Assembly (NCBI GenBank): GCA_946566685.1
Contig: CAMNXA010000001.1
Coordinates: forward strand, 1-64,000
Direction: 5' to 3'
Source of the DNA: an uncultured Lachnospiraceae bacterium
Lineage (GTDB): Bacteria > Bacillota > Clostridia > Lachnospirales > Lachnospiraceae
DNA: 64,000 nucleotides
In this document: positions 1,309 to 20,704 of the stretch, in pieces
Position numbering within the stretch: the first letter of the stretch is position 1
Layout: every line of letters begins with the position of its first letter
Program-made: the position numbers and the translations under genes
The notes under the pieces: generated by a model
The model's input: only the letters and a program-made list of their open reading frames with translations
The model's database searches: none
What the model was told of the DNA's origin: nothing

Positions 1309-2816
1309 CTAAAATTGAAAATATATAAATTGTTGTGCATCAAATGTCGGCCCATATTCCCCATATACAAAAATCATTACAATCAACACAATAACTGCTA
1401 ACCACTCAAACCAAATATTTTGCTCCATCAGGAAGACATCTATCAGGACCTTTTTCTTATATCGAATCAAATCTATGAGGAATAGCAACAATAATGAAAA
1501 TATTAGTATATTCATCTCTACTCGATCCAAACCAAGTTGATACATGCCGCCATTAAATAATGACCAGGGGGTCGGATACATAAATATACGTTTTATGAAG
1601 CGCAAAGCATCAGTAATGGAATCCGCTCGAAAAAATATCCATGCAAAATCAACAAACCCGAAAGTAATGATAGTCTGCATCAGCCTCCAGCTGAAACAAT
1701 TGGTATTGACATGAAATTTAGTAATGAACTTTTTGTAGGAAACCCCCAGAAAATCTGTTATTGTCTGATACAGTCCATGTATCCCACCCCAAACAATAAA
1801 ATGCCAATTTGCGCCGTGCCAAAGTCCACACACTAAGAATACAACCATTTTATTTATACTTTTTCTGACAGCACCTTTACGGTTTCCACCAAGTGGAATG
1901 TATACATAATCCCTGAACCAGGTGCTCAAAGAAATATGCCATCTATTCCAGAAGTCTCTTATACTTGTAGCAAAATAAGGAGTATTGAAATTTTCCATCA
2001 ATTCAATACCCATAATTTTGGACGCTCCAATTGCAATAAGGGAATAACTGCCAAAATCACAATATATCTGAATAGCAAAAAAAATTGCTGCAAGGCAGAG
2101 TTCTGCACTCCCATACATAAAATAATTATCAAAAACAGTATCTACAAGAATCGATACACGATCTGCTATGACCATTTTCATAAACAGACCCCAAACCATC
2201 AAGATTGATCCAGAAGTAACGCGTTTTGCATTCCATATCTTCAATTCATCAATGTGCTGAATCTGTGTCAAAAGATTCTTGGATCTTTCAATAGGGCCTG
2301 CTACTAGTTGCGGAAAAAAGGAAACAAACAGGGCGAACTGCAAAAGATTTCTCTCAGCCTTTATATCTTGACGATAAACATCAATAACGTAACCCAATGC
2401 CTGAAATGTATAAAATGAGATTCCAACAGGAAGTAGAAAATCAAACCGGTAACTAATCAAGCCAATATGTAAATGCTGGGTAATTCTATCCAGCGTCTGT
2501 ATCAAAAAGTTTCCATATTTAAATATACCTAATACAGATAAATTTCCACCTATACATATGGCTAATAATATTTTGCCCCCCCCCCCTCATAAATATATCC
2601 AATACTACTAGATTTGCTTTTTTCTATTAAAAGGCCACTAATATATGTAAATATTGTTGATGCTGCAATTAACACCGTATATTTTGGATTCCAACTCATG
2701 TAAAAATAATAGCTCGTAATCAACAGCCACACTTTTCGTAATTTAACAGGAATAATAAAATAAACAAAAAGTGTAACTGGGAAAAAGATCATAAAATGCA
2801 TTGAATTAAATTGCAT
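1309..2816 (-). CDS. MBOAT O-acyltransferase, phase-variable, out of frame here
   Basis: Two frames together make one AlgI/DltB-type MBOAT of about 502 residues. The N-terminal piece (ATG at 2816, GGAGG eight bases upstream) runs 84 residues and dies just after an 11-G tract (2576-2586). The second frame is open straight through the tract and continues with KILLAICIGGNLSVLG, then the MBOAT core, including SIRDFWNRWHISLSTWFRDY and CGLWHGANWHF (catalytic His). The frames differ by one base: 12 G (or 9 G) gives a single ORF. Multiple membrane segments are evident. The family transfers acyl groups through the membrane to an SGNH partner, encoded next. An automated annotation would call it a frameshifted pseudogene; the intact reading on both sides argues for a phase-OFF gene. 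A homopolymer sequencing error is the alternative. Confidence 0.86.
2576..2586 (-). repeat. Poly-G contingency tract (11 G) in the MBOAT gene
   Basis: Eleven consecutive C on the plus strand, read as G in the coding strand. It encodes a glycine run near residue 80 of the MBOAT. Twelve or nine G joins the two halves; eleven leads to a stop after five further codons. Confidence 0.93.
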
Positions 2817-3013
2817 ATGCCTATCCTCCGTTATTCGTGGATTGGTTACCTCAGATCAATGATTGAACGTAAATCTTTCAGTCTATTTGCATGGATCAAT
2901 GTATTCCTATACTGTCAACATGAAGCTACTGCTGATGATCCGAACCTTCTCCATACAATCCACTAAGTTTCAGTATCTTTTTTTAATCCAGTTTATGCTC
3001 ATCCCACCCATCT
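2817..3013. other. Intergenic spacer upstream of the MBOAT gene
   Basis: About 200 bases between the FkbM-type gene and the MBOAT gene, the longest spacer in the tailoring module. I see no convincing terminator and no small gene. A TTGACA box reads on the minus strand at 2913-2918, but no matching -10 lies 16-18 bases downstream. GGAGG at about 2825-2829 is the ribosome site of the MBOAT gene. Confidence 0.5.
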
Positions 3014-4124
3014 TCACATCTTCCCATAACACACTGTATCATCCATATTCCACCGATGATGTGCATAAAAAATATCATACTCTGGATTTATCTCCTTAAT
3101 TAATAAGGGAATCTCCCATAAGTGCTCCAACTTATGATAAGCAGAAATTGCCAGGATTGGATTCCACTTCTGAATGCTCTTACGTGCTCCCTCCAACGCC
3201 CTTATCTCACTTCCCTCAATATCCATGGAGATAAAGTCTATTTTTTTGCCATCAAGGATATGATCTATCGCATCAACCTCAATCTTGATTACCTTTTTCC
3301 CCGCGTCACTATTTAACAATGTTCCTGACACAAAATCGTCTCCTGCTGCAAAAAATAATTCCTGCGCCTGATCCCATACACCCATATTATAGCATTTCAC
3401 ATTTGTCAACCCATTACTTTGACAATAGTTCTCTAACACTTCAAAATTATCTCTGTCAGCCTCAAATGCATAATAATGATAATTCTGATTTACCCCCCCC
3501 CCTGCCTATCTGAGCGAGAAATCTTTGCAAGGTATCTCCCTCACACGCCCCACAATCAACAAAATTACCCGACACATGCTCCACAATACGATTATCAAAG
3601 TATTGGTTCTCTTCATATACTTTCCAGACCAATTCTAAATCATGAACAGCTCTGTGCAGTAAAATATTTCTAAACACCTGCTTCGATTCGGTATCTGCCA
3701 GGATTGTATATACCCGCTCTATCTTATCTGCATTCGAATTAATCGTATCCCTGACTTGTTCGTTCGGCAGATATTGAAAATATTCAGGATCTATATACAT
3801 ATAATTATCTATCCCATGTCTCTGTAACTGTTGGTGGATTTGATACTTGACATTGGCACAAATAATAACCAAACTGTTGTTGGGTATATCATCAATACTT
3901 ATCACACTGATATTCTTATACAGAGTACCCCATTTCGCCTGGTCATTATCTGCAAAAAAAGCTGGCACATATCCCATAGCACATAAATCTTTATATACCT
4001 GCTGCGCTGCCAGCCCCGTCCCCCATATGCCAATAATTCCCGCATTTTCTATTTTATCCTGTATTTTACTCCAGTTATCCTTATATATTTTTATGTCATT
4101 TTGTAATGTTTCTATAAATCCCAT
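3014..4124 (-). CDS. FkbM-family methyltransferase with N-terminal Rossmann domain, phase-variable, out of frame here
   Basis: Two frames combine into one protein of about 369 residues. I start at the ATG at 4124 because GAGGAATAAG sits just upstream; the ATG at 4136 has no spaced ribosome site. Residues about 30-110 form a Rossmann-like domain (GIWGTGLAAQQVYKDL, then FFADNDQAKWG). The methyltransferase begins with motif I, FVDCGACEGDTL, and a ten-G tract follows directly. In this assembly the frame then ends in KSELSLLCI. The other frame is open through the tract (VNQNYHYYAFEADRDNFEVL) and carries the FkbM signature SMDIEGSEIRALEG and SAYHKLEHLWEIP. Nine or twelve G restores the protein. The likely role is O-methylation of a sugar residue, switched on and off by tract length. 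Confidence 0.86.
3493..3502 (-). repeat. Poly-G contingency tract (10 G) in FkbM methyltransferase gene
   Basis: Ten C on the plus strand (G in the coding strand), encoding a Gly-rich loop just after SAM-binding motif I. Nine or twelve G restores the long ORF; ten does not. Confidence 0.93.
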
Positions 4125-4156
4125 CTTATTCCTCATTCCTATAGATTCTATACTCT

Positions 4157-5620
4157 CTATCTTTCATCCGTCTCGCCATCCGGTTTTACTAACAAGTAAC
4201 TTCTATAGAAAACTGTCCCTTTCCACATTGAATCTATCACTTTACCAATTTTCAAGGCACCCATTTCACAAACATGCTTCTGTACCGCTTCTGTCGCTGA
4301 TTTCAGGATAACATATGCTGCCTCACTTAAATCATTTCCTGAAAGCTCTAAAGCAGTTTGTCCCTCTGTAATCAATACATCAATATCCTCTTTCATCTGT
4401 GAAATATAGTTAATCTCCGTATCAAACAGCCTATTCAATGCTTTTTCCATTTCGTCAGGCTGCTTCCACCTCCATACCTGTGAACCGCATCTGTACAGAT
4501 ATCTTGCTAAATGTCCTTCATCATTGGTTCTATCTACCACACGAAATCCACTAAAGTCAACCTTACCTTTCCCGTAAAACAATTTCTCTCCAAAATAGCG
4601 AGAGAACCATAGCAAAAATGAGTGTTCCCCAAAATCTCTGTTATGAACTCCTCTGTAAAAATAGGGATTAGGAATCACCACAGTCCCATCATATAAATCC
4701 ACAACATTTTTAACGTAATTTACCTCAGACAAATTTACAAACTCTTCATAATCCGCTTCACTAATATAAAGCGGAATATATTTGTTACCTTTGGCCGCCA
4801 AAAACGTACACCTGTGCTTTCCGCTGGTCAGATTAAAATATTTTCCTTTTCTGTTCCAGACTGCCGTTGCTGCATTCCTGACAAAAAAGAGCGGATCTAA
4901 CTGTAATGCCTCACTCATTTGTTCAAAAATATGTGTCCTATTCGCAATCACATTGTCTCTCCAGGCAGCTGTGATTTCTATTTTTCCTTCTATCTGTGCC
5001 GTAAATTCACAATATTCTTTTAAATATGGCATTACAGAACAATTTTGATCCCCGTCTAAACTTCTAAAAAAGTTAATATGCGTAAAAAAACAAGGAATAG
5101 ATACATTTCCCCATTTCTCCATTTCATCATCCTGATAATCATTTGTAAAAATATATTCTACCGGAATATAAGCCGTAACCTGTCCATTTTCCTTGGAAAT
5201 TAACGCATAATCATGTAAGCTCGCCTCATGTGTACAGTCCGGAATATTAAATTCAGGCCTCTTTAAACATCCTTCGAACAAATCATCATATAACTGTGCC
5301 AACTCTTTTTCTTTATTTGAAGCATTGCCTAATAAAACATTATAGGGTTTATAAATCAAATTTCGAAAGCCGGCCTTTGTGAGCTGCCGTGCAATTTTTT
5401 CATGCTCAAAAACATTTTTAACTGATATATAGACTGCAATTTCCTCATCATCCCCAATCTCCGGCACCTCTTGAATACTCCATACAGGCCGCCCATTATA
5501 TTGATCCATTTCATGAGCCCTTTTGTCTATATATCCCATTACATCATAACCGCAAGATTCCAGGGTATCCTTGACAATTCCCCCGATTGATGCTGCACCA
5601 TAAAGTATAAATTTCCACAT
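4157..5620 (-). CDS. Rossmann plus ParB/sulfiredoxin-like domain protein (paralogue B), function unknown
   Basis: A 487-residue protein I cannot assign to an enzyme class. Residues 1-100 form a nucleotide-binding-like domain starting FILYGAASIGGIVKDTL with GYIDKRA after the second strand, the same type of domain seen in neighbouring methyltransferases. The middle (about 255-300) reads WNRKGKYFNLTSGKHRCTFL, then KGNKYIPLYISEADYEEFVN. This resembles the ParB/sulfiredoxin-like fold signature D/SG-x-x-R-x-x-FL...KG...IPv.iS..DYE. The same block occurs in the next upstream gene (5647-7092), so the two are tandem paralogues. The start is the ATG at 5620 behind GAGGG. It sits among tailoring enzymes, so a role in sugar modification or in assembling such enzymes is inference only. 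Confidence 0.7.
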   Translation of the reverse strand: MWKFILYGAASIGGIVKDTLESCGYDVMGYIDKRAHEMDQYNGRPVWSIQEVPEIGDDEEIAVYISVKNVFEHEKIARQLTKAGFRNLIYKPYNVLLGNASNKEKELAQLYDDLFEGCLKRPEFNIPDCTHEASLHDYALISKENGQVTAYIPVEYIFTNDYQDDEMEKWGNVSIPCFFTHINFFRSLDGDQNCSVMPYLKEYCEFTAQIEGKIEITAAWRDNVIANRTHIFEQMSEALQLDPLFFVRNAATAVWNRKGKYFNLTSGKHRCTFLAAKGNKYIPLYISEADYEEFVNLSEVNYVKNVVDLYDGTVVIPNPYFYRGVHNRDFGEHSFLLWFSRYFGEKLFYGKGKVDFSGFRVVDRTNDEGHLARYLYRCGSQVWRWKQPDEMEKALNRLFDTEINYISQMKEDIDVLITEGQTALELSGNDLSEAAYVILKSATEAVQKHVCEMGALKIGKVIDSMWKGTVFYRSYLLVKPDGETDER

Positions 5621-5646
5621 ACAAAGCCCTCGTATTAAAGTTCTTC

Positions 5647-7092
5647 CTACAATTTTCTACTATAAATGCCAACTTCCCTAACTTCTTTTTCTTCTACTAC
5701 CCTAAGCAAAAAATGATACTCTTTAAATCCACAAGCATACAATAATCTTTTACTTTCATCAATATTCCCATAAGTTTTATAAACCAGGAATCTACAACTT
5801 CTCAAAGCATCGAATCTCAATATATCTTCCAAATTCTTTCGAATATCCTTCAAAACAAATGCAAGTTCTATCTCTTTTTCCACCTGGCAAACGTCTTTCC
5901 TAATCTGTATGTTGCCGATTTGAATCAGCATTTGTATTTGATTAATCGTATTTATTATCTCTTCCCTATCCTCGATTACCGCCGCATACTTTATTCCCAT
6001 TCTGAGAAAATTAGCTGCAAAATAGCCCTCATATTCACTAATTTCTAATATATTGTTTATTTTTCTACTCTCTTTTCCTAAATACTTAAGAGTCTCACAT
6101 AAAATATCTACACACAAATCATCCTTTGTAATCTTCTCATATTTAAACAGAGGATGTGGTAAATGATAGGAAAACTGTTGTGCACACCCTTCCATTTTAT
6201 CACAAATTGCTTTGCTGACAGGCATGTTAAGCCATAATTCATAATCCTCTCTGCTCATACGGACCGGTATCCATCTGCATCCCTTATCAATAAGAAAACA
6301 TACTCTGTTATGTCCATCCATCACATTAAAATATGCCCTCTTATTCCACTTCACTTCTACGGGTGCATACATAAAATATTCATGATTTTCTTTCCATTCC
6401 TTTTCCAACATAAGATAAGTGTTGAATCTTCTCTGCAAAAAATCTCCGACATTCTCTGACTGTCCATCTTCTGGCATATAGACCTGTATAAAATTATCCG
6501 CATTATCAATCTGCCCCTGGAAAAACTCATATCCCTCCGCAAGAATCCGAAAAGATGCCACAGGAATATTTGCATTGCCATCCGGCCAATTTTCTTCTGT
6601 ATAAAGCAAATCTATCGGGCACCAACTTACTATATATTCACTGCTTTTGCGGATAATACAATCTACAAAATTCGCTCTTATCAAAGTGCTATAATAAGGT
6701 ATTTCTCTAATCCTTCCTATATCATGCTCACAGCAATACGTATAAATCTCTAACATCTGTATACGCGGATTAGCAAGATAACCATCTCCCATGGGCAGAA
6801 AAATAATTTTATCGATTCCGAGGTCATATAGATTCTGCGCAACTTCTTGATGCATAAATGCATTATGAATACACACTACTACAACTATATGTGTCCCCAG
6901 TTTACTTACCCCGTCCTGCGGTGTATAGATTGGAATATTGATATCCTCTGTGCAAATGGAGGCAGCATTTTTATCAAAAAAAGCCGACACATGATAATGT
7001 CTGCTAAAATAACGGTATCTTTCCTTCCCAAGTGCACCGCCCCCATAAATCACCATATTATCATTTGCTGATATTGTATAATAACCACTCAT
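5647..7092 (-). CDS. Rossmann plus ParB/sulfiredoxin-like domain protein (paralogue A) with methyltransferase-like C-terminus
   Basis: A 481-residue paralogue of the following gene. It opens with MVIYGGGALGKERYRYF (Rossmann-like), followed by VSAFFDKNAA. The central block is VKWNKRAYFNVMDGHNRVCF and KGCRWIPVRMSREDYELWLN, whose spacing matches paralogue B. Unlike B, its last 150 residues resemble a class I methyltransferase core: ILEISEYEGYFAANFLRMG, then AAVIEDREE. The canonical glycine motif is degenerate, so catalysis is doubtful. Twenty-six bases separate the paralogues, which are surely co-transcribed. Function is unknown; fusion of the shared domain with a methyltransferase-like part links it to the FkbM proteins of this module. 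Confidence 0.68.
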   Translation of the reverse strand: MSGYYTISANDNMVIYGGGALGKERYRYFSRHYHVSAFFDKNAASICTEDINIPIYTPQDGVSKLGTHIVVVVCIHNAFMHQEVAQNLYDLGIDKIIFLPMGDGYLANPRIQMLEIYTYCCEHDIGRIREIPYYSTLIRANFVDCIIRKSSEYIVSWCPIDLLYTEENWPDGNANIPVASFRILAEGYEFFQGQIDNADNFIQVYMPEDGQSENVGDFLQRRFNTYLMLEKEWKENHEYFMYAPVEVKWNKRAYFNVMDGHNRVCFLIDKGCRWIPVRMSREDYELWLNMPVSKAICDKMEGCAQQFSYHLPHPLFKYEKITKDDLCVDILCETLKYLGKESRKINNILEISEYEGYFAANFLRMGIKYAAVIEDREEIINTINQIQMLIQIGNIQIRKDVCQVEKEIELAFVLKDIRKNLEDILRFDALRSCRFLVYKTYGNIDESKRLLYACGFKEYHFLLRVVEEKEVREVGIYSRKL

Positions 7093-7124
7093 TCTCTTGC
7101 TACATGTCCTCGTATCTATTCAGA

Positions 7125-7997
7125 TTATATAAGCTTGTCCGCATCTATTTCGTCAATATGTTCTTTATAAAAACTGCATAAATTCTCTATCGTCATATTC
7201 CATTCAGAAAACTGGATATCCCCTATTTCATCTCTAATTCTCTGATTACATCCTGTATACTCAGTCTTAAATCCCTCTTTGGCCACTAAGATATCACAAT
7301 CTATGTTCAATATCTCTCTCACTTTACAGGCAAGTGTATACAAATCAATCTTCGTTCCACGACAGACATTATAATGTCTGTAATGCGGCTCATTTTCAAT
7401 AAACCACCTCATGATTTTTACTAAATCCTCTATCCATAAATAATCAAAATATACGTTTTGTGATATCGTAATCGGCATACCCTTCAGGCTTCTACAGATT
7501 GCATTAGAAATAAATCTTCTGGACCATTCTTCATACTTTCCATACACACCAAAAAGACGAAGATCATAAAGATTTCCATCCTTTCGACAAGTCTTAGACA
7601 TAATATACTTGGAAAATCCATAAGGGTCCCTGGGAACATGAGTTCCAAAATAATCTTCTGTCATATTAGGGATATAATGTGCTGAACTGTACTCTGCCCC
7701 GGAGCCAAAATAGTACATCTTTCCATAATATTCTCTGCATCTCTCCAAATTAAAAAACATACGAAGATTATCATCGAGAACATCATAATCAGTTGTATCG
7801 ACTTTCACCACATCATTTCTGTTAGCACAGTGAATAATAATATCAAAACACATATCTTCCAGATATCTTTCCACTTCAATATCATCCAGAAGATCTAATT
7901 CCCGATGATCAGGCGCATAAAGTTCATATTGATCTTCCAATTGTTCTTTTAAATTTCTTCCAATAAATCCTGTGGACCCCGTAAGTAATATTTTCAT
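7125..7997 (-). CDS. NAD-dependent sugar epimerase/reductase (extended SDR)
   Basis: A 290-residue protein with the N-terminal dinucleotide motif TGSTGFIG (residues 6-13) and the catalytic pair in YGFSKYI (Tyr and Lys three residues apart, near residue 145). Length and layout fit RmlD/WcaG-like extended SDRs that act on nucleotide-linked 4-keto sugars. The ATG at 7997 lies six bases after the stop of the nucleotidyltransferase gene, with AGAGGAG further upstream inside that gene's end, so translation is probably coupled. It may finish the unusual sugar made by the upstream NeuB/ThDP/SDR genes. The substrate is not visible from sequence. Confidence 0.85.
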   Translation of the reverse strand: MKILLTGSTGFIGRNLKEQLEDQYELYAPDHRELDLLDDIEVERYLEDMCFDIIIHCANRNDVVKVDTTDYDVLDDNLRMFFNLERCREYYGKMYYFGSGAEYSSAHYIPNMTEDYFGTHVPRDPYGFSKYIMSKTCRKDGNLYDLRLFGVYGKYEEWSRRFISNAICRSLKGMPITISQNVYFDYLWIEDLVKIMRWFIENEPHYRHYNVCRGTKIDLYTLACKVREILNIDCDILVAKEGFKTEYTGCNQRIRDEIGDIQFSEWNMTIENLCSFYKEHIDEIDADKLI

Positions 7998-8003
7998 AAT
8001 ATT

Positions 8004-8909
8004 TTACACATTTACTCCTCTTACCTTTGTTTCATCCTGCACGGAATACCGTACTAATTCATATATAGCTTCTATAGCTGCATTGATACTGCCTTCATCA
8101 ATTATTCCAGGGATTATATTTCCTGCCTCTTCCCTCATTTGATTAATAAAAGCATCTATTTCTGCATCATGAGCGATATTCCCAACGTAATGGGATTCTT
8201 GCAGCTTTTCTTCATTCTCTTCTCCCTGATGCAAATATTCTGCTGAAAGCTTTTTGGATAAATCAATCATATCCAACACCTTACTTCTCAAAGCAACGGG
8301 AGCAATCTCCATAACCAGAGATTTCATATATACTGGTGGAAAAGTCTCTCTTTCTATTGCCCACTTGATGCTAAGAGCCGCATAGATTGCATATAAGTAA
8401 TCCTTAATGATGACTTGACTGTCTTTTGAAAAATATTCCTTTATCTGATCCACATGATAAGGAATGAATTTCTCTTTCCTAAACACGGAGTTCATTATGG
8501 GAATTATCTTCATCTGAATTCCATAAGGATCCCACGTATAGGGAGACTGGAGTGTCCAACCAATTATATTATATAATCCACAGGATTCTTTGCCATCAAA
8601 CGCAGGCGTGTGTAAAAACTGCATAAATGATGTAAATTCCCACAGAGGTATAAATTCATAAGGTAAGTTATCAAAATAGACCCTGTGCTTTAAATCTTTT
8701 TCCTTTTCATGGAAGGGTATATATATTTTTTCCGGATTACTTCTATCTACATACAAAAATCTTGTATCATAATCACTGTCCTCATACTGTAATCCTTTAG
8801 AGATTCCTCCCACTAAGGCTCCATAAAGCAGCATAAAGTTCTTTTCTTCTGCGAACTGTAGTACATCACTCATAAATTTCTTTTGAAATTCTTCATTACC
8901 AAATAACAT
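8004..8909 (-). CDS. RlaP/YcgL-type predicted nucleotidyltransferase
   Basis: A 301-residue protein. The nucleotidyltransferase (pol beta-like) signature appears early: LYGALVGGISKG, then EDSDYDTRFLYVDR, with the two aspartates of the metal site in DSDYD. This layout (G-x-x-x-G followed by SDYDxRf.Yv) matches the YcgL/RlaP family (PF10127), whose substrates are poorly known. The usual GS before the helix is altered to GA. The start is the ATG at 8909 behind GGCAGGG. It sits between a pyruvyltransferase-like gene and an epimerase, an unexpected place for this family, which suggests nucleotidyl or phospho-modification of a sugar or of a partner protein. That function is inference. Confidence 0.72.
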   Translation of the reverse strand: MLFGNEEFQKKFMSDVLQFAEEKNFMLLYGALVGGISKGLQYEDSDYDTRFLYVDRSNPEKIYIPFHEKEKDLKHRVYFDNLPYEFIPLWEFTSFMQFLHTPAFDGKESCGLYNIIGWTLQSPYTWDPYGIQMKIIPIMNSVFRKEKFIPYHVDQIKEYFSKDSQVIIKDYLYAIYAALSIKWAIERETFPPVYMKSLVMEIAPVALRSKVLDMIDLSKKLSAEYLHQGEENEEKLQESHYVGNIAHDAEIDAFINQMREEAGNIIPGIIDEGSINAAIEAIYELVRYSVQDETKVRGVNV

Positions 8910-8952
8910 GTTCTACCCTGCCTGTCGAACTACATACCGTTCTTACCATTCT

Positions 8953-10227
8953 TTAGAAGGAAGCCGATATAAAATAGTCAAAATCTATCCCTTCCTGCTT
9001 TCTATCCCCAGTCAATGCTTCTTTCGCCATTTCACGCCCTGGCTGCGTTGTCACCCAGATAAAATCACATTCTTTAAAGATGTCATGCCCCGGCTTTATA
9101 ACCGGAACATTCATACAGCATCCTTTTACATAGGGGTCAATAAATGCTTTGATACTACTCTGGGGACAAATCTCTTTCATAAATTTATATACTAGTTTAC
9201 CATGTACGCCGCATCCCCATATACCATACGTAAACTCGCTTTTAGAAGCACGCTTTTCCTGTAATATTTCTACTTTCTTACGTAGTTCCCGGTTCATCTT
9301 CTCATTGGGACGATTCTCAAGATACGAACTTAATTCACATGTATCCGTGTATATTCTGCTCAGTCTCTCCAAGCCGCTTTGAAACGATCTAATAAATTTT
9401 TCCTGAAATTCAGATACATCCACTACCTGAGGATTCCAGTCAATCCTTTCAAAATCATTCGGATAATATAAAGGAATAAATTTATCTAACCAACTGAATC
9501 GGTAATCAAAGTTCTGCGATACCGCTATTACTGGTATACCCATCGCCATACAGGGCACTATAGCATGTAGTCTTGAAGACACTACCAATGCGCCTTCCTC
9601 ACAATATTCCCTATACTGCTCTATTGCAATAGTATTAATACGTTTTACTTCCTCATCATCTACAGGTAGTTTTTCATAAGTATACGCATGTGTCTTCCTG
9701 ACAACACGATCCTTCAATTCTTCTGGTATATATTTTTCCAAAGCCTGTGGTACATCCACCAGATAGATCTTTGTCTGCTTCGGGCTCTCTTTTCGTCTGG
9801 GCAATGTTAACGTGACACATCCGGACAAATACGCCTGTACTCCTTTTGCCCTAAGCAGTTCCATTGTCTCTTCATCACGACAGCCAATCGGCTGATACAT
9901 TCTCAACTCTGGTAAAATATCTTCACATTCTGGTTCGTTCATTGCAGTGCTGATATAATATGGAATGACTTTACGGCTTATAGGGAAAATATCAAATCTT
10001 TTATAATTCGTTATGGCCTGTGCCATGGGTACTATTACATATTCTCCATCATAGTTTTTTAATCCCGTATAATTTAAATCGATGATATCTTCCTTAGGTA
10101 TTCCCAGCTTCTTATATAAATGATCAATCGCATAAGCCTGCGCATTATCGCCTATGTTTGCCACAACATTGCTATGCTTATCTAATGAAATATCATCATA
10201 CCATGACACAAATCTTCCATACTTCAT
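8953..10227 (-). CDS. Polysaccharide pyruvyltransferase family protein with C-terminal Rossmann domain
   Basis: A 424-residue protein. The first 300 residues fit the polysaccharide pyruvyl transferase fold (PF04230): ANIGDNAQAYAIDHLYKKLG near the start, a CRDEETMELLRAKG segment, and VVSSRLHAIVPCMAMGIPVI, the conserved R-x-H motif of the second half. Such enzymes add ketal-linked pyruvate or are glycosyltransferase-like relatives. The last 100 residues (YGIWGCGVHGKLVYKFM, then AFIDPYVKG) repeat the domain that sits at the N-terminus of the neighbouring FkbM and radical SAM proteins. GGAGGAGATTTAT precedes the ATG at 10227. The domain at the opposite end of this protein supports a shared binding role rather than one catalytic step. 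Confidence 0.78.
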   Translation of the reverse strand: MKYGRFVSWYDDISLDKHSNVVANIGDNAQAYAIDHLYKKLGIPKEDIIDLNYTGLKNYDGEYVIVPMAQAITNYKRFDIFPISRKVIPYYISTAMNEPECEDILPELRMYQPIGCRDEETMELLRAKGVQAYLSGCVTLTLPRRKESPKQTKIYLVDVPQALEKYIPEELKDRVVRKTHAYTYEKLPVDDEEVKRINTIAIEQYREYCEEGALVVSSRLHAIVPCMAMGIPVIAVSQNFDYRFSWLDKFIPLYYPNDFERIDWNPQVVDVSEFQEKFIRSFQSGLERLSRIYTDTCELSSYLENRPNEKMNRELRKKVEILQEKRASKSEFTYGIWGCGVHGKLVYKFMKEICPQSSIKAFIDPYVKGCCMNVPVIKPGHDIFKECDFIWVTTQPGREMAKEALTGDRKQEGIDFDYFISASF

Positions 10228-10248
10228 ATAAATCTCCTCCTACTGCCT

Positions 10249-11444
10249 TCATGATTCAGATGAATTTACCTGCTCACCTGCTCTACAATACCGATGATCC
10301 TCCGTATACCAATCACAGTGGTCACACGCTTCGCACCAGTCTCTCTTAAAAAATTCCTCAATCCCTTCCCTGCAATTTGATCTAATCTCTAACAGATCCT
10401 GTTTCTCATCAATATATCCAAGATCATATAATCCAATGGATCTGATACAGGCATACATGGCACCTTTATATATGGTCTTACACCACCACGGTGCATGACA
10501 CTTATCATACTGTCTCCTTAATTCCTCCATGCCGCGATTTCTCTTTTCGCAGCTCCCTGCTGAAAACCATTCCTGTTCGTATAATACATTAACGCAAATT
10601 CCATACTCTCTTAATTTATCTACAAAAGTTCCAGGTTTATCACTAATGCCATAATCGCTCACAATAACCGACAACTTCTCATGCTTTAGCATAGAAAGCA
10701 TTTCTTCAGATAATGTGACTGTCCCGTTTGTAACGATTGCAACATTACGAATTTTATCCTCCTTAACCACATACGCAAGCACCGCATCTAAGTCCTTATA
10801 TAAAAATGGCTCTCCTCCAATCAACTCCAGAAAAACACATTCATCGATGTTACTTACCAGGTTATCAATATCCTGAAATATCTCCTCTTTTGCAACATCT
10901 TCATGCTTCCTTAAATACGGAATCATTTCAATACATTCCTTGCATCTGTAGGTACATCTGGTTGTTAAAACCATAGTCATTCTTGGCAAAACAAATTTGT
11001 TGTTATAAAACAATTCATTATATTTTTCTTTTAAGTCTGTGACCGACAGGTTTCTCCTATTCTCATTCTCCAGATGATATGCCCACATCGCATACAATGC
11101 CAGGTTGTTCCTACAGGGAAGAAGTTCCGATGGATATACGAATATATTTACCCCCCCCCCTCACACTTTTGCAATTCTTCGATGATTTCTTCCGGCTGTC
11201 CTACAGTAATGACCCACAGGAACTCATCCACTGCTATATCATTTAATATGTCCGGAGAACATACCTCTTTCTTCTCGCATCCAAGTATATAAACAAAACC
11301 CGCATCCTGTTTTTCTTTTTTCCTGTCCACAAGAAATGCAACTTTTTCTTCCGGAATATTATAATCCATCATAAAACGATGTGCCCGGTTATCTGCTCCC
11401 CAAATAATAATCTTCTTATCGTATTCCATAATATTTTTATCCAT
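10249..11444 (-). CDS. Radical SAM enzyme with N-terminal Rossmann domain, phase-variable, out of frame here
   Basis: The ATG at 11444 (GGAG upstream) opens a 98-residue frame with IIIWGADNRAHRFMMDY and VAFLVDRKK, again the shared Rossmann-like domain. It ends immediately after a ten-G tract at a TAA (11148-11150). The adjacent frame is open through the tract (NIFVYPSELLPCRNNLALYA) and carries a radical SAM core: the cluster motif CTYRCKEC (C-x3-C-x2-C), ELIGGEPFLYKDL, and a Cys-rich tail (WCEACDHC). Eleven or eight G gives one protein of about 398 residues. In the OFF state the cell would still make the free 98-residue domain. The role is a radical modification of a sugar or sugar acid; the substrate is unknown. 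Confidence 0.85.
11151..11160 (-). repeat. Poly-G contingency tract (10 G) in radical SAM gene
   Basis: Ten C on the plus strand, G in the coding strand, at the linker between the Rossmann-like and radical SAM domains. At ten G the next codon is TAA; eleven or eight G joins the domains. Confidence 0.93.
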
Positions 11445-11520
11445 TTTGTGCTCCTTATTATATTTCTAAACCACAATGTATGAAATTTCTAATATCCGTT
11501 CAATAAAATAGTATCGCCTT

Positions 11521-12354
11521 CTACCAGCAAGTCCGTCCGCCGTCCACAATTACTGTTGCACCTGTCATATACGAACTCGCATCCGACAAAAGATATAAAA
11601 TCGTCCCTTTATATTCATCACTATCAGCCATTCTTCCCATAGGAATCAGATTAGACAGCTTATCCAAAAAATCGTCATTTTGGTTGTTAAAGACGCCTGC
11701 CGGACATAAACTATTTGCCCGAACACCCTTTTGTGCCCAATAGGTAGCAATATATTTAGTTAATCCCAGAATCCCATGCTTTATGACAGAATAAGTAACC
11801 GGCTTCACCATCTGCTCTTCTTCCTTTAACCCATCCTTTTGATATATTCGCTGATCCGGGGCAATAATTCCTAAATCTGATGATATATTTAGAATTACTC
11901 CTTTCTTCTGTTTCGCCATAACGCTGCCAAATACCTGTGAACAAACCAAAGCCCCTGTTAATCCTACAGAAATATCGTCCATCCACATTTCAATAGGGAA
12001 ATCCTCAAACCGGATGTTTTTCATGTTTTTTGCATCTCCCTCAACCTTTGGATTATTCGCAGCATTATTGATCAGTCCATCTATATGCGAATATTTCCCG
12101 CATATTTCTACTGCAAGCTGCTCCATTGCATGTCGGTCTTTTATATCTGCCTTATAAATCTCTACTATGCCCTCCGGATACTCCTTTAGAAGCTCTTCTT
12201 TCGCTCTATCAAGACTTTCATTCGAAATATCAATAAGTACTGGAATACCGCCCCCATCAAGAATTGCCTCTGCATGCTTTTTCCCAAGAAATCCTGCTCC
12301 TCCAGTTATGATGATTACTCTGCCTTTTATCTCAAACTTATCAATTGTATTCAT
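11521..12354 (-). CDS. Short-chain dehydrogenase/reductase
   Basis: A 277-residue SDR. I start at the ATG at 12354 because AGAGGAGTTGAC precedes it and the upstream in-frame start lies inside the previous gene. It shows the cofactor motif TGGAGFLGKKHAE, the NNAA-type motif LINNAANNP and the catalytic Y-x-x-x-K as YSVIKHG. It ends GATVIVDGGRTCW, as classical SDRs do. It lies one base after another SDR with a different active-site context. The pair probably performs successive keto/hydroxyl redox steps on the sugar acid made by the neighbouring genes. Substrate unknown. Confidence 0.88.
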   Translation of the reverse strand: MNTIDKFEIKGRVIIITGGAGFLGKKHAEAILDGGGIPVLIDISNESLDRAKEELLKEYPEGIVEIYKADIKDRHAMEQLAVEICGKYSHIDGLINNAANNPKVEGDAKNMKNIRFEDFPIEMWMDDISVGLTGALVCSQVFGSVMAKQKKGVILNISSDLGIIAPDQRIYQKDGLKEEEQMVKPVTYSVIKHGILGLTKYIATYWAQKGVRANSLCPAGVFNNQNDDFLDKLSNLIPMGRMADSDEYKGTILYLLSDASSYMTGATVIVDGGRTCW

Positions 12355-12355
12355 G

Positions 12356-13129
12356 TCAACTCCTCTTTTGCCCGCCATCAATTACGAGTTCTGCACCTGT
12401 TATAAATCTTGCACGCTCAGAAGCCAGAAATACAATTGCATCTGCAATTTCTTCCGGCCTTCCAAATCTCTTTAACGGAACCTCTCTATTAATATAAGCT
12501 TCTGTTCCCTCTTTATCATTATTATACAATTCTTCCCAGCGTCCCCCCTCAAACATAATATTTCCTGGAACTACACAGTTAACCCGAACAGACCTTTCTG
12601 CCAGATCCCCTGCCAAATATTTGCTCAGTGTTCTAATTGCATTTTTAGCAGCAGCATACGCATAAGGAGCCCGCATCCTCTCATAAGCAACAATGGACGA
12701 AATAAGAATAATGCTTCCGTTATCGCTAAGAGACAGTATTTCAGTAAACTCTCGTATAACCTTTACCGCTGGCAAAAGATTCACGTTAATAAGCGTTTCC
12801 CATTCCTTAATGTCCAATTTATCTTCACAAATTGGTATCCCCGAGCCCAGATTAGGCACTAAAACATCCAATCTCCCCCACGTATCTTCAATATAACTAC
12901 GGCACTGTGATATAGTATCTGCCACTGTTATATCCCCGGTAAAACAAGCAACATGTCCACTCCCATACTTATCGCACAAAATTTTATAACTATGCTTAAG
13001 CTTTTCCTCATTTCGTCCATTTAAAAGTACATTTGCACCTTCTTTTAAAAAACTCTCAGCCGTAGAAAATCCTATTCCCTGAGAAGATGCCGTTATCATT
13101 ACATTTTTATCTCTTAATCCTAAATCCAT
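12356..13129 (-). CDS. Short-chain dehydrogenase/reductase
   Basis: A 257-residue classical SDR with TASSQGIGFSTAESF near the N-terminus, VPNLGSG in place of the usual NNAG (the Asn is kept one residue away), ISSIVAYERM and the catalytic YAAAKNAI. It ends ITGAELVIDGGQKRS. The next SDR gene starts one base after its stop, so the two are translated together. Together with the TIM-barrel isomerase and class IV aminotransferase upstream, it looks like part of an unusual monosaccharide pathway; the reaction cannot be named from sequence. Confidence 0.88.
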   Translation of the reverse strand: MDLGLRDKNVMITASSQGIGFSTAESFLKEGANVLLNGRNEEKLKHSYKILCDKYGSGHVACFTGDITVADTISQCRSYIEDTWGRLDVLVPNLGSGIPICEDKLDIKEWETLINVNLLPAVKVIREFTEILSLSDNGSIILISSIVAYERMRAPYAYAAAKNAIRTLSKYLAGDLAERSVRVNCVVPGNIMFEGGRWEELYNNDKEGTEAYINREVPLKRFGRPEEIADAIVFLASERARFITGAELVIDGGQKRS

Positions 13130-13172
13130 AAAAGCCTCGTATCATCCTATTTCTACATAGTTTCCCGCAAAT

Positions 13173-14264
13173 TTATTCTATCCATGCATATAACATCATT
13201 TCCATGCAGTTTCTATGGTGCCGAACTGCAAACTTATATTCAGGAACCAACTCATAAAGAAAGAGTGGGATTTCAAACACATCATCTGCCTTATACGCCA
13301 TTGCAACAACAATATTGGGTTTCCATTTTTTTATACTCTTTTGGGCGCCCTTCAAAATATCCATCTCACTCCCGATCGTATCAATCTTAAGCTGTGAATA
13401 TTGTTCCGTCATAAAATCATCCAATGCAATCATCTGTACAGTTTTGCCTTCATTTCCTATTAATCCACCTGTCCTCCCATCTAACTCTGAAGAAGAAAAT
13501 TTTACATTACCCTTCTCTGCTCCAACAGCCATTTGATATATTTGAATTTTGTCATCTTTCATTCCCCATTCTTTCAGTAAACGGCTTCTCCTCTCACTTA
13601 AAGCGAAAAAACTGATTTCATCCGGTTCAAATCCAATAATTCGCTTACATACCCCAAATTTTTTAAACAAATATCTTTCTATTGTGTCCCCAACATAGGC
13701 TCCACAATCTATATATATTTCATCTTTATCTATCTTGTCAAAAGCCGCAATTCCAAGACAATAATTTCCATACAATATATCATCTGCATGAAAGGGTCGT
13801 CCCGTTTTGTCTCCCCCCTGCATTCTCTCCAAAATCATTGTTTGATAAGTCTTTTTGGAAAGATCATCTGTCAATAACTCATAACATTGAAGCAGTTCCC
13901 TCCTATGCAGCATATAAACTGCTTTGTCGTAAGCATACCATTCTTTCTGCACACTGGTCAGCTGAGCGCCCACTTCCTCTATAACCCTTTTCTGTAAAGA
14001 GCATATCAAAACTACAATATCATTCCTTTTTCCTAATTCTTCCGGACTTATGACCAACAATCCATTATATCTTTTTCCCCACCACTCATTGTTATTGTCA
14101 CAATATCCTTGTATATTGACTCCATTTTTCTGCAAATTTGCAATAGATTTTTGATATCGATTCGCGGTTTCGCCCACGCCCCATATCCAAACCTCCTTAT
14201 TTAACAGGGATAAAGTATCTACCCCCCCCCCCCTTAAGCTTTTCATGTCTTTCAAAATTTCCAC
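13173..14264 (-). CDS. FkbM-like methyltransferase with N-terminal Rossmann domain, phase-variable, in frame here
   Basis: A 363-residue protein. I choose the GTG at 14264 because AAGGAGG lies eight bases upstream; a longer in-frame start at 14300 has no ribosome site. A 12-G tract at codons about 11-15 (SLRGGGVDT) is in frame, so this is the one ON gene of the four. The Rossmann-like domain follows (VWIWGVGETANRYQKS, then GYCDNNNEWWG). The methyltransferase domain has YIDCGAYVGDTIERYL and IGFEPDEISF. The usual FkbM DIEGSE signature is DTIGSE here and the SAYH motif is MAYKA, so active-site residues have drifted; activity on a different acceptor, or loss of activity, is possible. Confidence 0.83.
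   Translation of the reverse strand: MEILKDMKSLRGGGVDTLSLLNKEVWIWGVGETANRYQKSIANLQKNGVNIQGYCDNNNEWWGKRYNGLLVISPEELGKRNDIVVLICSLQKRVIEEVGAQLTSVQKEWYAYDKAVYMLHRRELLQCYELLTDDLSKKTYQTMILERMQGGDKTGRPFHADDILYGNYCLGIAAFDKIDKDEIYIDCGAYVGDTIERYLFKKFGVCKRIIGFEPDEISFFALSERRSRLLKEWGMKDDKIQIYQMAVGAEKGNVKFSSSELDGRTGGLIGNEGKTVQMIALDDFMTEQYSQLKIDTIGSEMDILKGAQKSIKKWKPNIVVAMAYKADDVFEIPLFLYELVPEYKFAVRHHRNCMEMMLYAWIE
14222..14233 (-). repeat. Poly-G contingency tract (12 G) near start of FkbM-like gene
   Basis: Twelve C on the plus strand. As G in the coding strand it encodes Gly codons about 30 bases after the GTG start and is in frame at this length. Any change that is not a multiple of three would stop translation near the N-terminus. 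Confidence 0.93.
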
Positions 14265-14316
14265 GGTATTTTCCTCCTTGTTTGCACATCTAAAACACAT
14301 TGTATAAAATTCTCTG

Positions 14317-19869: not shown

Positions 19870-19912
19870 TATATTTTCTGTTACTATCGGGAAAAATAAT
19901 GATTGTATCTAC

Positions 19913-19942
19913 AAAACATTCTCTAACAAATGTTATCTTCAA
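19913..19942 (+). repeat. Left 30-bp inverted repeat of invertible element (IRL)
   Basis: A perfect 30-base match to the reverse complement of 20656-20685. Inside lies AACATT, an 8-base spacer CTCTAACA, then AATGTT: two inverted recombinase-binding arms around a crossover-length spacer, as expected for a tyrosine recombinase site. Confidence 0.95.
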
Positions 19943-19961
19943 ATACAAAACTATATCTTTT

Positions 19962-19990
19962 AGTATATTACATCAATACAAGTATTGCAA
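19962..19990 (-). promoter_or_regulatory. SigmaA-type promoter inside the invertible element
   Basis: On the minus strand TTGCAA (plus 19985-19990), a 17-base spacer, then TATACT (plus 19962-19967). Four and five of six bases match the consensus, with ideal spacing. Transcription would start near 19955, cross the left repeat and give a leader of about 130 bases before the NeuB-like ATG at 19824. Confidence 0.72.
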
Positions 19991-20059
19991 GGAAACCTTT
20001 TGACGTCCTTACAAAGCTATCTTTATAAAGTGCCCTATGAAGACTTTATTCCCTGTCCA

Positions 20060-20641
20060 TTATAACATGATATTTCTATATACTTCGTCTTTATCATCCT
20101 GCTCAATGGAAAGATATCTCTTGGTTATCTCCATTGAGGAATGATTATAAATCGACATAATAATCGCTGGAGACACGCCCTGCTTCCAAGCATGATATCC
20201 AAAAGTCTTCCGTAATGAATGGCAGCCAAGATTCCCTTCATACCCCAAACACTGACAGGCATCCTTAATAATTACATAGGCTCTATTTCTCCCAATATGG
20301 TTGTTTACCCCTATTCTACTCTTAAAAATATATTCCGCAGGCTCTATTCTGTCTGATAATGATTTCTTTAACTCGCACAGGCATTCCTGACATTGATCAT
20401 TCAAATATATATTAGCTATTTTCCCTGTTTTTTGTTCATTTATAATCACATGTTCTTTAAATTGTTTTTGTTCAAAATTCCAAACATCCCGCCACTCTAG
20501 TTTCAACAGATCACTGATTCTCAATGCTGTATTAATACCTAGTGTGACTAATGCGTAATTTCTTATCTCTCCTTTGTCATAAAAAAACTTTCTTAATTCA
20601 TGAATCTCATTGATCTTTCTGATTGGTTGCGTTGTGCTCAT
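20060..20641 (-). CDS. FimB/FimE-type tyrosine recombinase (DNA invertase)
   Basis: A 193-residue recombinase from the ATG at 20641 (AAGGAAAGGAAAG upstream). All catalytic residues are visible: Arg in NTALRISDLLKLEW, Lys in NEQKTGKIA, the H-x-x-R box in GCHSLRKTFGYHAW, the second His in YNHSSMEI and the nucleophile Tyr in TKRYLSIEQ. It lacks the N-terminal arm-binding domain of phage integrases and has the size of FimB/FimE. The right inverted repeat ends 14 bases before its start codon and the left repeat lies 117 bases past its stop, so it lies inside the segment it presumably inverts. No phage or conjugation genes are nearby. Confidence 0.93.
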   Translation of the reverse strand: MSTTQPIRKINEIHELRKFFYDKGEIRNYALVTLGINTALRISDLLKLEWRDVWNFEQKQFKEHVIINEQKTGKIANIYLNDQCQECLCELKKSLSDRIEPAEYIFKSRIGVNNHIGRNRAYVIIKDACQCLGYEGNLGCHSLRKTFGYHAWKQGVSPAIIMSIYNHSSMEITKRYLSIEQDDKDEVYRNIML

Positions 20642-20655
20642 ATTCTTTCCTTTCC

Positions 20656-20685
20656 TTGAAGATAACATTTGTTAGAGAATGTTTT
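20656..20685 (-). repeat. Right 30-bp inverted repeat of invertible element (IRR)
   Basis: Perfect inverted copy of 19913-19942, located between the terminator and the recombinase start codon. It carries the same AACATT / 8-base spacer / AATGTT core. Confidence 0.95.
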
Positions 20686-20704
20686 ATTCATAACACGAAA
20701 AAAG

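What the first reader, a model, noticed from the sequence alone, without database searches (positions are those of the whole stretch)
2576..14233. Four poly-G contingency genes in a 12-kb tailoring module
Poly-C runs of 11, 10, 10 and 12 (2576-2586, 3493-3502, 11151-11160, 14222-14233) occur only in the left module and always read as G in the coding strand of a gene. In three cases the upstream frame stops soon after the run while the other frame continues with an unmistakable family sequence (MBOAT, FkbM, radical SAM); the fourth is in frame. No other G or C run of more than six was seen in the remaining 50 kb. This is the pattern of slipped-strand phase variation known from Campylobacter and Neisseria, but it is not something I know as described for Clostridia glycan loci. 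The four independent genes allow 16 decoration states.
Basis: partly seen in the sequence, partly recalled or inferred. Interest (0 to 1): 0.93.

Follow-up and report, generated by a model that had tools for sequence, protein, structure and literature searches.

The report
Poly-G switches in a Lachnospiraceae genus
Four genes predicted to decorate the surface sugars of a Lachnospiraceae-like bacterium each contain a run of 10-12 G's, and its genome has 19 more such runs; they likely switch genes on and off through copying slips, which would bring a multi-gene variation strategy, so far described mainly in pathogens, to a probable gut commensal.

Summary
Runs C11, C10, C10 and C12 are at the stated places; no other G/C run exceeds 6 in the window. 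They lie in an MBOAT acyltransferase, an FkbM methyltransferase, a radical SAM protein and a second FkbM protein. The first three are out of frame across the run, the fourth in frame. Intact relatives show each broken pair is one gene.

It is not a local oddity. The genome has 23 runs of 10 or more; 118 genomes of other genera in its family have 0-10 each, median 0. At one lipoprotein site, eight species of the genus read G9, G9, G11 (out of frame), G10 four times and an interrupted run (in frame). Of 18 cross-species tract sites, 11 differ in length. A second tract class abuts TATAAT, apparently as promoter spacer.

Reading as G in the coding strand is ordinary here and proves nothing.

Best reading: slipped-strand contingency loci, a known mechanism in a lineage where my ten paper searches found no report. 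Switching within a population was not tested. A recombinase inside an inverted repeat upstream may be a second switch.

The parts
2576..2586 (-). G11 tract (C11 on +) in the MBOAT gene; flanking frames out of register
   Evidence: intact relative P0002 reads GGG at this site
1309..2816 (-). MBOAT O-acyltransferase gene, split by the tract (upstream frame 2589-2816, downstream frame 1312-2574)
   Evidence: PF03062 E 4e-31; start and frames; 501-aa intact relative 84% identical
3493..3502 (-). G10 tract in FkbM-1; flanking frames out of register
3014..4136 (-). FkbM-1 methyltransferase gene, split by the tract (3504-4136 and 3017-3490)
   Evidence: PF05050 E 2e-13 on the downstream piece; both pieces match adjacent stretches of one ORF in L272 (392 aa) and L273 (335 aa)
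11151..11160 (-). G10 tract in the radical SAM gene; flanking frames out of register
10249..11444 (-). Radical SAM gene, split by the tract (11163-11444 and 10252-11148)
   Evidence: PF04055 E 1e-10 on the downstream piece; intact 392-aa relative P0171, 86% identical over the downstream piece
14222..14233 (-). G12 tract near the 5' end of FkbM-2, in frame, encoding GGG
13173..14300 (-). FkbM-2 methyltransferase gene, intact (375 aa)
   Evidence: PF05050 E 9e-16, TIGR01444 above its cut-off; relatives with 3, 5 and 3 glycines at the site
4157..10227 (-). Context: untracted genes of the same strand between the tracts, among them an NAD-dependent epimerase (7125-7997) and a polysaccharide pyruvyl transferase family protein (8953-10227)
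   Evidence: PF01370, PF04230
11521..13129 (-). Context: two short-chain dehydrogenase genes between the radical SAM and FkbM-2 genes
   Evidence: PF13561
19000..19824 (-). Context: NeuB-family sugar-acid synthase, first gene of the left stretch after the recombinase segment
   Evidence: PF03102 E 2e-71
19906..20692 (.). Candidate invertible segment: 37-nt inverted repeat (arms 19906-19942, 20656-20692; 30 nt of it perfect) around a tyrosine recombinase gene (20060-20668, -)
   Evidence: PF00589 E 7e-23

Best explanation
Four surface-glycan-type genes on this strand each contain a run of 10-12 G's that leaves three of them out of frame and one in frame, and these runs most likely act as reversible on/off switches by slipped-strand copying. 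Shown by sequence: the runs, the frames, the intact relatives, and different run lengths with different frame states at the same site in related species. Inferred: that run length changes often enough to mix states within one population; that an out-of-frame gene gives a truncated, inactive enzyme; and that the products (an O-acyl transfer, two methyl transfers and a radical SAM reaction) tailor a cell-surface glycan, so that sister cells would display different decorations. The four genes belong to a genome-wide set of 23 runs of 10 or more, also found in glycan enzymes, surface proteins, lipoproteins and regulators. A second class in related species sits directly before a TATAAT box and would change promoter spacing instead of reading frame.
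For: (1) Excess: 23 runs of 10+ in 3.9 Mb against about 1 in a 4-Mb order-3 Markov simulation trained on the window. The genome's run lengths are 8: six, 9: four, 10: sixteen, 11: four, 12, 14 and 21: one each, so they do not fall off smoothly. (2) Lineage: 118 genomes of other genera in the family (completeness at least 90) have 0-10 runs of 10+, median 0; own 23, one congener 28. (3) Same-site length change: the lipoprotein (solute-binding-like) linker reads G9 out, G9 out, G11 out, G10 in (four species), interrupted run in; 11 of 18 cross-species tract clusters differ in length. (4) Retained genes: downstream of the tract that gene keeps dN/dS 0.04-0.08 in 15 species pairs, including pairs where both copies are out of frame. 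(5) Window genes: P0002 with GGG and intact frame; P0121-P0123 with 3, 5, 3 Gly and intact; P0171 intact without tract; FkbM-1 intact in L272 and L273. (6) Repeated use of one spot: runs at the same N-terminal loop in five MBOAT genes of four genomes, all out of frame, and a G7 in frame in a sixth; in the model of P0002 the GGG (78-80) falls at the junction of a weakly predicted loop and a helix. (7) A mixture of states: in five genomes 25 tracts in frame and 20 out of frame, all reading G, plus 4 in frame reading C, among 101 tracts scored.
Against: No reads: neither mixed lengths in a population nor the exact length of any run is proved. Seven of 18 cross-species clusters have equal lengths. 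All five long-tract MBOAT genes are out of frame, which could also be decay. 7 of 36 relatives of the same genus have no run of 10, and the left module itself is rare: FkbM-2 in 5, radical SAM in 2, FkbM-1 in 3 of 60 genus genomes, own included. Genomes of other families of the order can be rich in such runs (G053 312, G040 122 ten-base positions, partly at contig ends), so the trait is not unique to this genus. The G21 in truA (L021) looks like an assembly or sequencing problem. A MutS is present, so loss of mismatch repair is not the simple cause. The automatic frame caller mis-scored some sites (window MBOAT, the lipoprotein), which I settled by translation.
Confidence: 0.85

Rival explanations
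1. Miscounted homopolymers: the runs are real but the assembler or sequencer lost or gained a G, so that the three 'broken' genes are intact in the cell.
For: Illumina and PCR are known to slip on G tracts (PMC9187656, passages read); the genome is a draft of 115 contigs; one run is an implausible G21 in truA.
Against: Miscounting changes a length by one or so but does not create 23 runs of 10+ or place them in homologous loops. Independent assemblies give the same length-to-frame pattern at one site, G10 in frame in 4 of 4 and G9 or G11 out of frame in 3 of 3. A real G10-12 would still be expected to slip.
Confidence: 0.08
2. Decaying genes: the tracts are neutral expansions in genes that are being lost, and the out-of-frame state is permanent.
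For: Three of four window genes and five of five long-tract MBOAT genes are out of frame.
Against: Both halves remain open on either side of the run, with no other break found. The lipoprotein gene with out-of-frame copies in three species keeps dN/dS 0.04-0.08. In-frame and out-of-frame states alternate among close relatives. For the window's genes themselves no dN/dS was computed.
Confidence: 0.05
3. Programmed frameshifting or transcriptional slippage on the G run makes some full-length protein from every cell, so the tract sets an amount and not a state.
For: Long homopolymers can slip polymerases and ribosomes (general knowledge, no call).
Against: Length is not conserved at the sites, and relatives use in-frame lengths as often as out-of-frame ones; a programmed signal would be expected to keep one out-of-frame length. 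It could add to phase variation without replacing it.
Confidence: 0.05
4. Selected glycine linkers: the runs are kept because a Gly3-4 linker is useful, and length changes are incidental.
For: Several in-frame tracts lie in linkers right after a lipoprotein signal peptide (L011, L015, L152).
Against: Only 23% of glycine codons in the window's long ORFs are GGG, so a linker need not be pure G. Many tracts are out of frame or lie before genes and next to TATAAT.
Confidence: 0.04

Closest known systems
Poly-G/C contingency loci ('phasome') of Campylobacter
   Same: Many G/C homopolymers of about 7-12 in one genome, mainly inside reading frames, often in surface-glycan genes, with on and off states. 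C. jejuni NCTC11168 has 29 poly-G/C loci of 7 or more (PMC4965091, abstract read); poly-G/C made up 91% of the repeats counted across the genus, and 20% of gene groups had intergenic tracts (PMC6321876, passages).
   Different: Here the host is a Lachnospiraceae-like Clostridia genus and the tracts are also in SBP lipoproteins, giant surface proteins, CotH-type and regulator genes. A mutS gene is present. Switching is demonstrated in Campylobacter and only inferred here.
Bifidobacterium breve G-tract pilus switch
   Same: A gut commensal with an intragenic G10-G11 tract that splits a surface-protein gene into two ORFs and slips in culture and in mice (PMC9187656, passages).
   Different: Actinobacteria; one or two pilus clusters per genome, not some 23 tracts; not glycan enzymes.
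Promoter-spacer repeat phase variation (Neisseria-type, recalled)
   Same: A homopolymer between -35 and -10 whose length sets promoter spacing.
   Different: Here the G run directly abuts TATAAT with weak TTG-like boxes 19-20 nt upstream; found in related species and at one own-genome site (L011), not in the window.
Recombinase-inverted promoters of Clostridioides difficile and Bacteroides
   Same: Phase variation in Clostridia and of gut-commensal glycan loci is known by DNA inversion (PMC11868660, passages); the window also holds a recombinase in an inverted repeat.
   Different: The four tracts work by a different, recombinase-free route.

Membership tests
Slipped-strand (poly-G) phase-variable contingency loci | Homopolymer long enough to slip and more frequent than chance | tested here: met
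   Runs of 10-12; 4 seen against 0.016-0.064 expected in 64 kb; 23 in the genome
Slipped-strand (poly-G) phase-variable contingency loci | Length change alters reading frame or promoter spacing of a gene | tested here: met
   Open frames on both sides, out of register in 3 of 4 window genes; promoter-type tracts in related species
Slipped-strand (poly-G) phase-variable contingency loci | Length polymorphism at the same site among relatives, with on and off states | tested here: met
   Eight-species lipoprotein site; 11 of 18 clusters differ. Between species only; for the window's genes only protein relatives were available
Slipped-strand (poly-G) phase-variable contingency loci | Out-of-frame genes are kept by selection | tested here: met
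   dN/dS 0.04-0.08 for the lipoprotein gene; not computed for the window genes
Slipped-strand (poly-G) phase-variable contingency loci | Frequent, reversible switching within a clonal population | not testable with these tools
   No reads or cultures
Slipped-strand (poly-G) phase-variable contingency loci | Phenotype change (glycan decoration) | not testable with these tools
   Function rests on Pfam families only
Recombinase-inverted switch (19906-20692) | Inverted repeats with a site-specific recombinase | tested here: met
   37-nt repeat, 30 nt perfect, around a PF00589 gene; the only inverted repeat of 20+ nt found in the window within 3 kb, seed 14
Recombinase-inverted switch (19906-20692) | Promoter inside the segment | tested here: inconclusive
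   6 promoter-like sites found, 5.2 expected by shuffling
Recombinase-inverted switch (19906-20692) | Both orientations observed | not testable with these tools
   No relative of the recombinase in the loci held or in viral contigs

The most novel reading that the evidence does not exclude
A commensal Clostridia genus runs a Campylobacter-scale phasome: tens of G tracts per genome in many species, in both coding frames and promoter spacers, covering glycan tailoring enzymes, giant surface proteins, nutrient-binding lipoproteins, flagellin-adjacent sites and regulators. In this window it is stacked below a recombinase-inverted element, giving a two-tier switch in which inversion would turn the whole glycan module on or off and the four G tracts would set its decorations.
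Probability: 0.45. Interest if true: 0.88.

Novelty: new member of a known kind. Interest (0 to 1): 0.73.

Why it matters
[quoted passage not shown] A probable gut-commensal Clostridia genus with some 10-37 G tracts of 9 or more in most of the eleven congeners counted would answer it and make it testable. It would also mean that gene counts and 'pseudogenes' in such genomes are misread, that one strain presents many surface types to phages and to the immune system, and that strain-level metagenomics should track tract lengths.

Tried and rejected
Rejected as evidence: the G-on-coding-strand argument. Rejected as a simple cause: loss of MutS (MutL was not searched). Rfam found no RNA family in the window. 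Promoter-class test: 7 tracts directly before TATAAT among 74 non-coding or edge tracts and 0 among 92 coding ones, p 0.003, but only 0.08 when orthologues and tandem copies are collapsed to three families, so that class is likely and not proved; the -35-like boxes match 3-5 of 6 bases. I could not find the window's module in the nearest congeners, so the window's own tracts could be compared only through protein relatives. Searches for the recombinase in viral contigs found nothing; plasmid relatives are all under 60% identical. Ten paper searches listed no report of homopolymer phase variation in Lachnospiraceae; the library lacks most subscription journals and preprints. A 2010 homopolymer survey did include Clostridia among its groups (PMC2831843, passages); I did not see its per-genome tables.

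Only part of the tract sites was examined: own genome 23 of 23 runs of 10+ (and all four of 9); G033 28 of 28, G034 23 of 25, G025 19 of 20, G062 26 of 34, G061 11 of 11, G028 10 of 12, G072 14 of 37, G002 3 of 18 runs of 9+; none of those of G006, G010 or G015. Regions with N stretches were dropped. Sites were fetched because they bear a tract, so losses of tracts are under-counted.
Full report
What was checked. On the minus strand the runs split an MBOAT acyltransferase, an FkbM methyltransferase and a radical SAM gene, while a second FkbM gene is in frame. Order-3 and order-1 Markov simulations trained on the window give 0.016 and 0.064 runs of 10+ per 64 kb.

One gene each. The two halves of every broken gene belong together. 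For MBOAT, the nearest listed relative (P0002, 84%, 501 aa) has the intact frame with GGG at the tract, while none of the other 118 relatives in the list of 120 shows GGG there (5251 passed the threshold, 120 were listed). For FkbM-1, both halves match adjacent stretches of single ORFs in two congeners (L272, L273). For radical SAM, P0171 (86%) is an intact 392-aa protein without a tract. For FkbM-2, relatives P0121, P0122 and P0123 carry 3, 5 and 3 glycines at the site, and P0124 (57%) none. P0171 and P0122 come from contigs of the same length (18,767), which suggests one related module.

Genome-wide. The own genome (3.9 Mb, 115 contigs) has 23 runs of 10 or more: sixteen of 10, four of 11, and one each of 12, 14 and 21; there are only four of 9 and six of 8. 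By my reading the 23 lie in or beside: two MBOAT, four FkbM, one radical SAM and one weak GDSL-like gene; one gene with a GNSAGG motif (recalled hydrolase motif, no Pfam match); two solute-binding lipoproteins, one giant surface-type protein, one protein with sortase and Big_2 matches, one CotH-type gene; two LytTR response regulators; one possible GG-leader peptide (my reading, no Pfam match); one transporter permease (tract just 5' of it); one unassigned membrane-type protein; truA (G21, suspect); and three sites without a clear gene.

Among relatives. Of 36 congeners, 29 have at least one run of 10 and 7 have none. In 118 genomes of other genera of the family the count of runs of 10+ is 0-10 with median 0, against 23 here and 28 in congener G083. 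Other families of the order include run-rich genomes (G053, G040, G044), so the trait is not unique. Across five genomes, 101 tracts of 9+ were scored automatically: 25 in frame and 20 out of frame reading G, 4 in frame reading C, 52 at edges or non-coding. G033 has eight tracts in 27 kb of one contig, with AlgX-like, hexapeptide-transferase, cytidylyltransferase, acyltransferase and weak methyltransferase matches among the genes: a second glycan-type cluster with the same habit.

Same-site comparison. A solute-binding-like lipoprotein (20 of 60 genus genomes) carries the tract in the linker after its signal peptide in seven species and an interrupted run in an eighth. Frames: own G9 out, G061 G9 out, G062 G11 out, G028, G072, G033 and G022 G10 in, G034 interrupted and in. 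The other 13 loci have no run of 8+ at that site. Downstream dN/dS is 0.04-0.08 in all 15 pairs of six species tested. Across 166 tracts of 8+ there are 18 cross-species clusters besides the MBOAT group; 11 differ in length and 7 do not. Runs at the same N-terminal loop occur in five MBOAT genes (own two, G020, G008, and a C9 in G019), all out of frame, with a G7 in frame in G076. In a model of P0002 (mean pLDDT 80.5) the GGG, residues 78-80, lies where a weakly predicted stretch (block 71-80, pLDDT 60) meets helix 77-98.

A second tract class. Seven tracts run straight into TATAAT and lie before genes: a pair of orthologous signal-peptide-type proteins (L151, L184), three tandem signal-peptide-type proteins (L240) and a GntR regulator in two species (L158, L168); LytTR regulators in the own genome and G062 have TATGAT (L011, L237). 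TTG-type boxes lie 19-20 nt upstream in several, matching 3-5 of 6 bases. Length change there would alter promoter spacing. The statistics are fair for single sites and weak after collapsing relatives.

Reading as G on the coding strand is normal here: runs of 5 are 292 to 60, runs of 10+ 41 to 6.

Mechanism. Slipped-strand copying of a G10-12 tract is an established cause of on/off switching in Campylobacter and Bifidobacterium (PMC4965091 abstract; PMC6321876 and PMC9187656 passages). Here the sequence shows tract, frames, alternative states and retained genes; rate, reversibility and phenotype are inferred. A mutS gene is present.

An extra lead. Between the left module and the genes to its right, a tyrosine recombinase gene (20060-20668) sits inside a 37-nt inverted repeat, 30 nt of it perfect, the only inverted repeat of 20+ nt in the window within 3 kb. 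NCBIfam invertase models match below their cut-offs, and promoter-like sites in the region are no more than chance. If it inverts, it would be a master switch above the four tracts; this is a proposal.

Host. No name is given. Nearest named records for the MBOAT gene are Clostridium sp. and Lachnospiraceae metagenome genomes, several labelled Acetatifactor, many from animal guts; 'Lachnospiraceae-like' and 'gut commensal' are inferred from these.

Noticed in passing
window 19906-20692: Tyrosine recombinase inside a 37-nt inverted repeat (30 nt perfect) between two glycan gene blocks: candidate invertible element above the tract module.
   Followed up: partly
L151:3995, L184:3989, L240:3835/4828/5820, L158:4038, L168:4043, L011:14382, L237:3771: G9-G11 tracts directly before TATAAT or TATGAT, upstream of signal-peptide-type proteins and regulators: likely promoter-spacer switches.
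   Followed up: partly
L163:4001 and L164:4021 (G033): G10 tracts a few bases before the start of a flagellin gene (PF00669/PF00700) and of a long flagellin-like ORF (my reading).
   Followed up: no
L157:4011, L166:3983, L162:319, L178:2938, L195:4011, L020:3413: Tracts at the very 3' end of AraC-type or LytTR response regulator genes, conserved in place but differing in length (10, 11; 10, 12, 10); in L157/L166 a 57-aa frame follows the tract in both species.
   Followed up: partly
L021:5456-5476: G21 followed by C and G6 inside truA: in frame but implausible, probably an assembly or sequencing error.
   Followed up: no
L014:5471-5855: G11 tract between two short segments ending in GG-type leader motifs, a possible tract-split peptide precursor (my reading, no Pfam match).
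   Followed up: no
G010: 64 runs of 9+ but only four ten-base positions: a different length profile from its congeners.
   Followed up: no
L016, L027, L149, L190: Giant acidic surface-type proteins in several species carry tracts near a shared LPDTLE motif, in frame (G9, G10) or out of frame (G10 in G025).
   Followed up: partly
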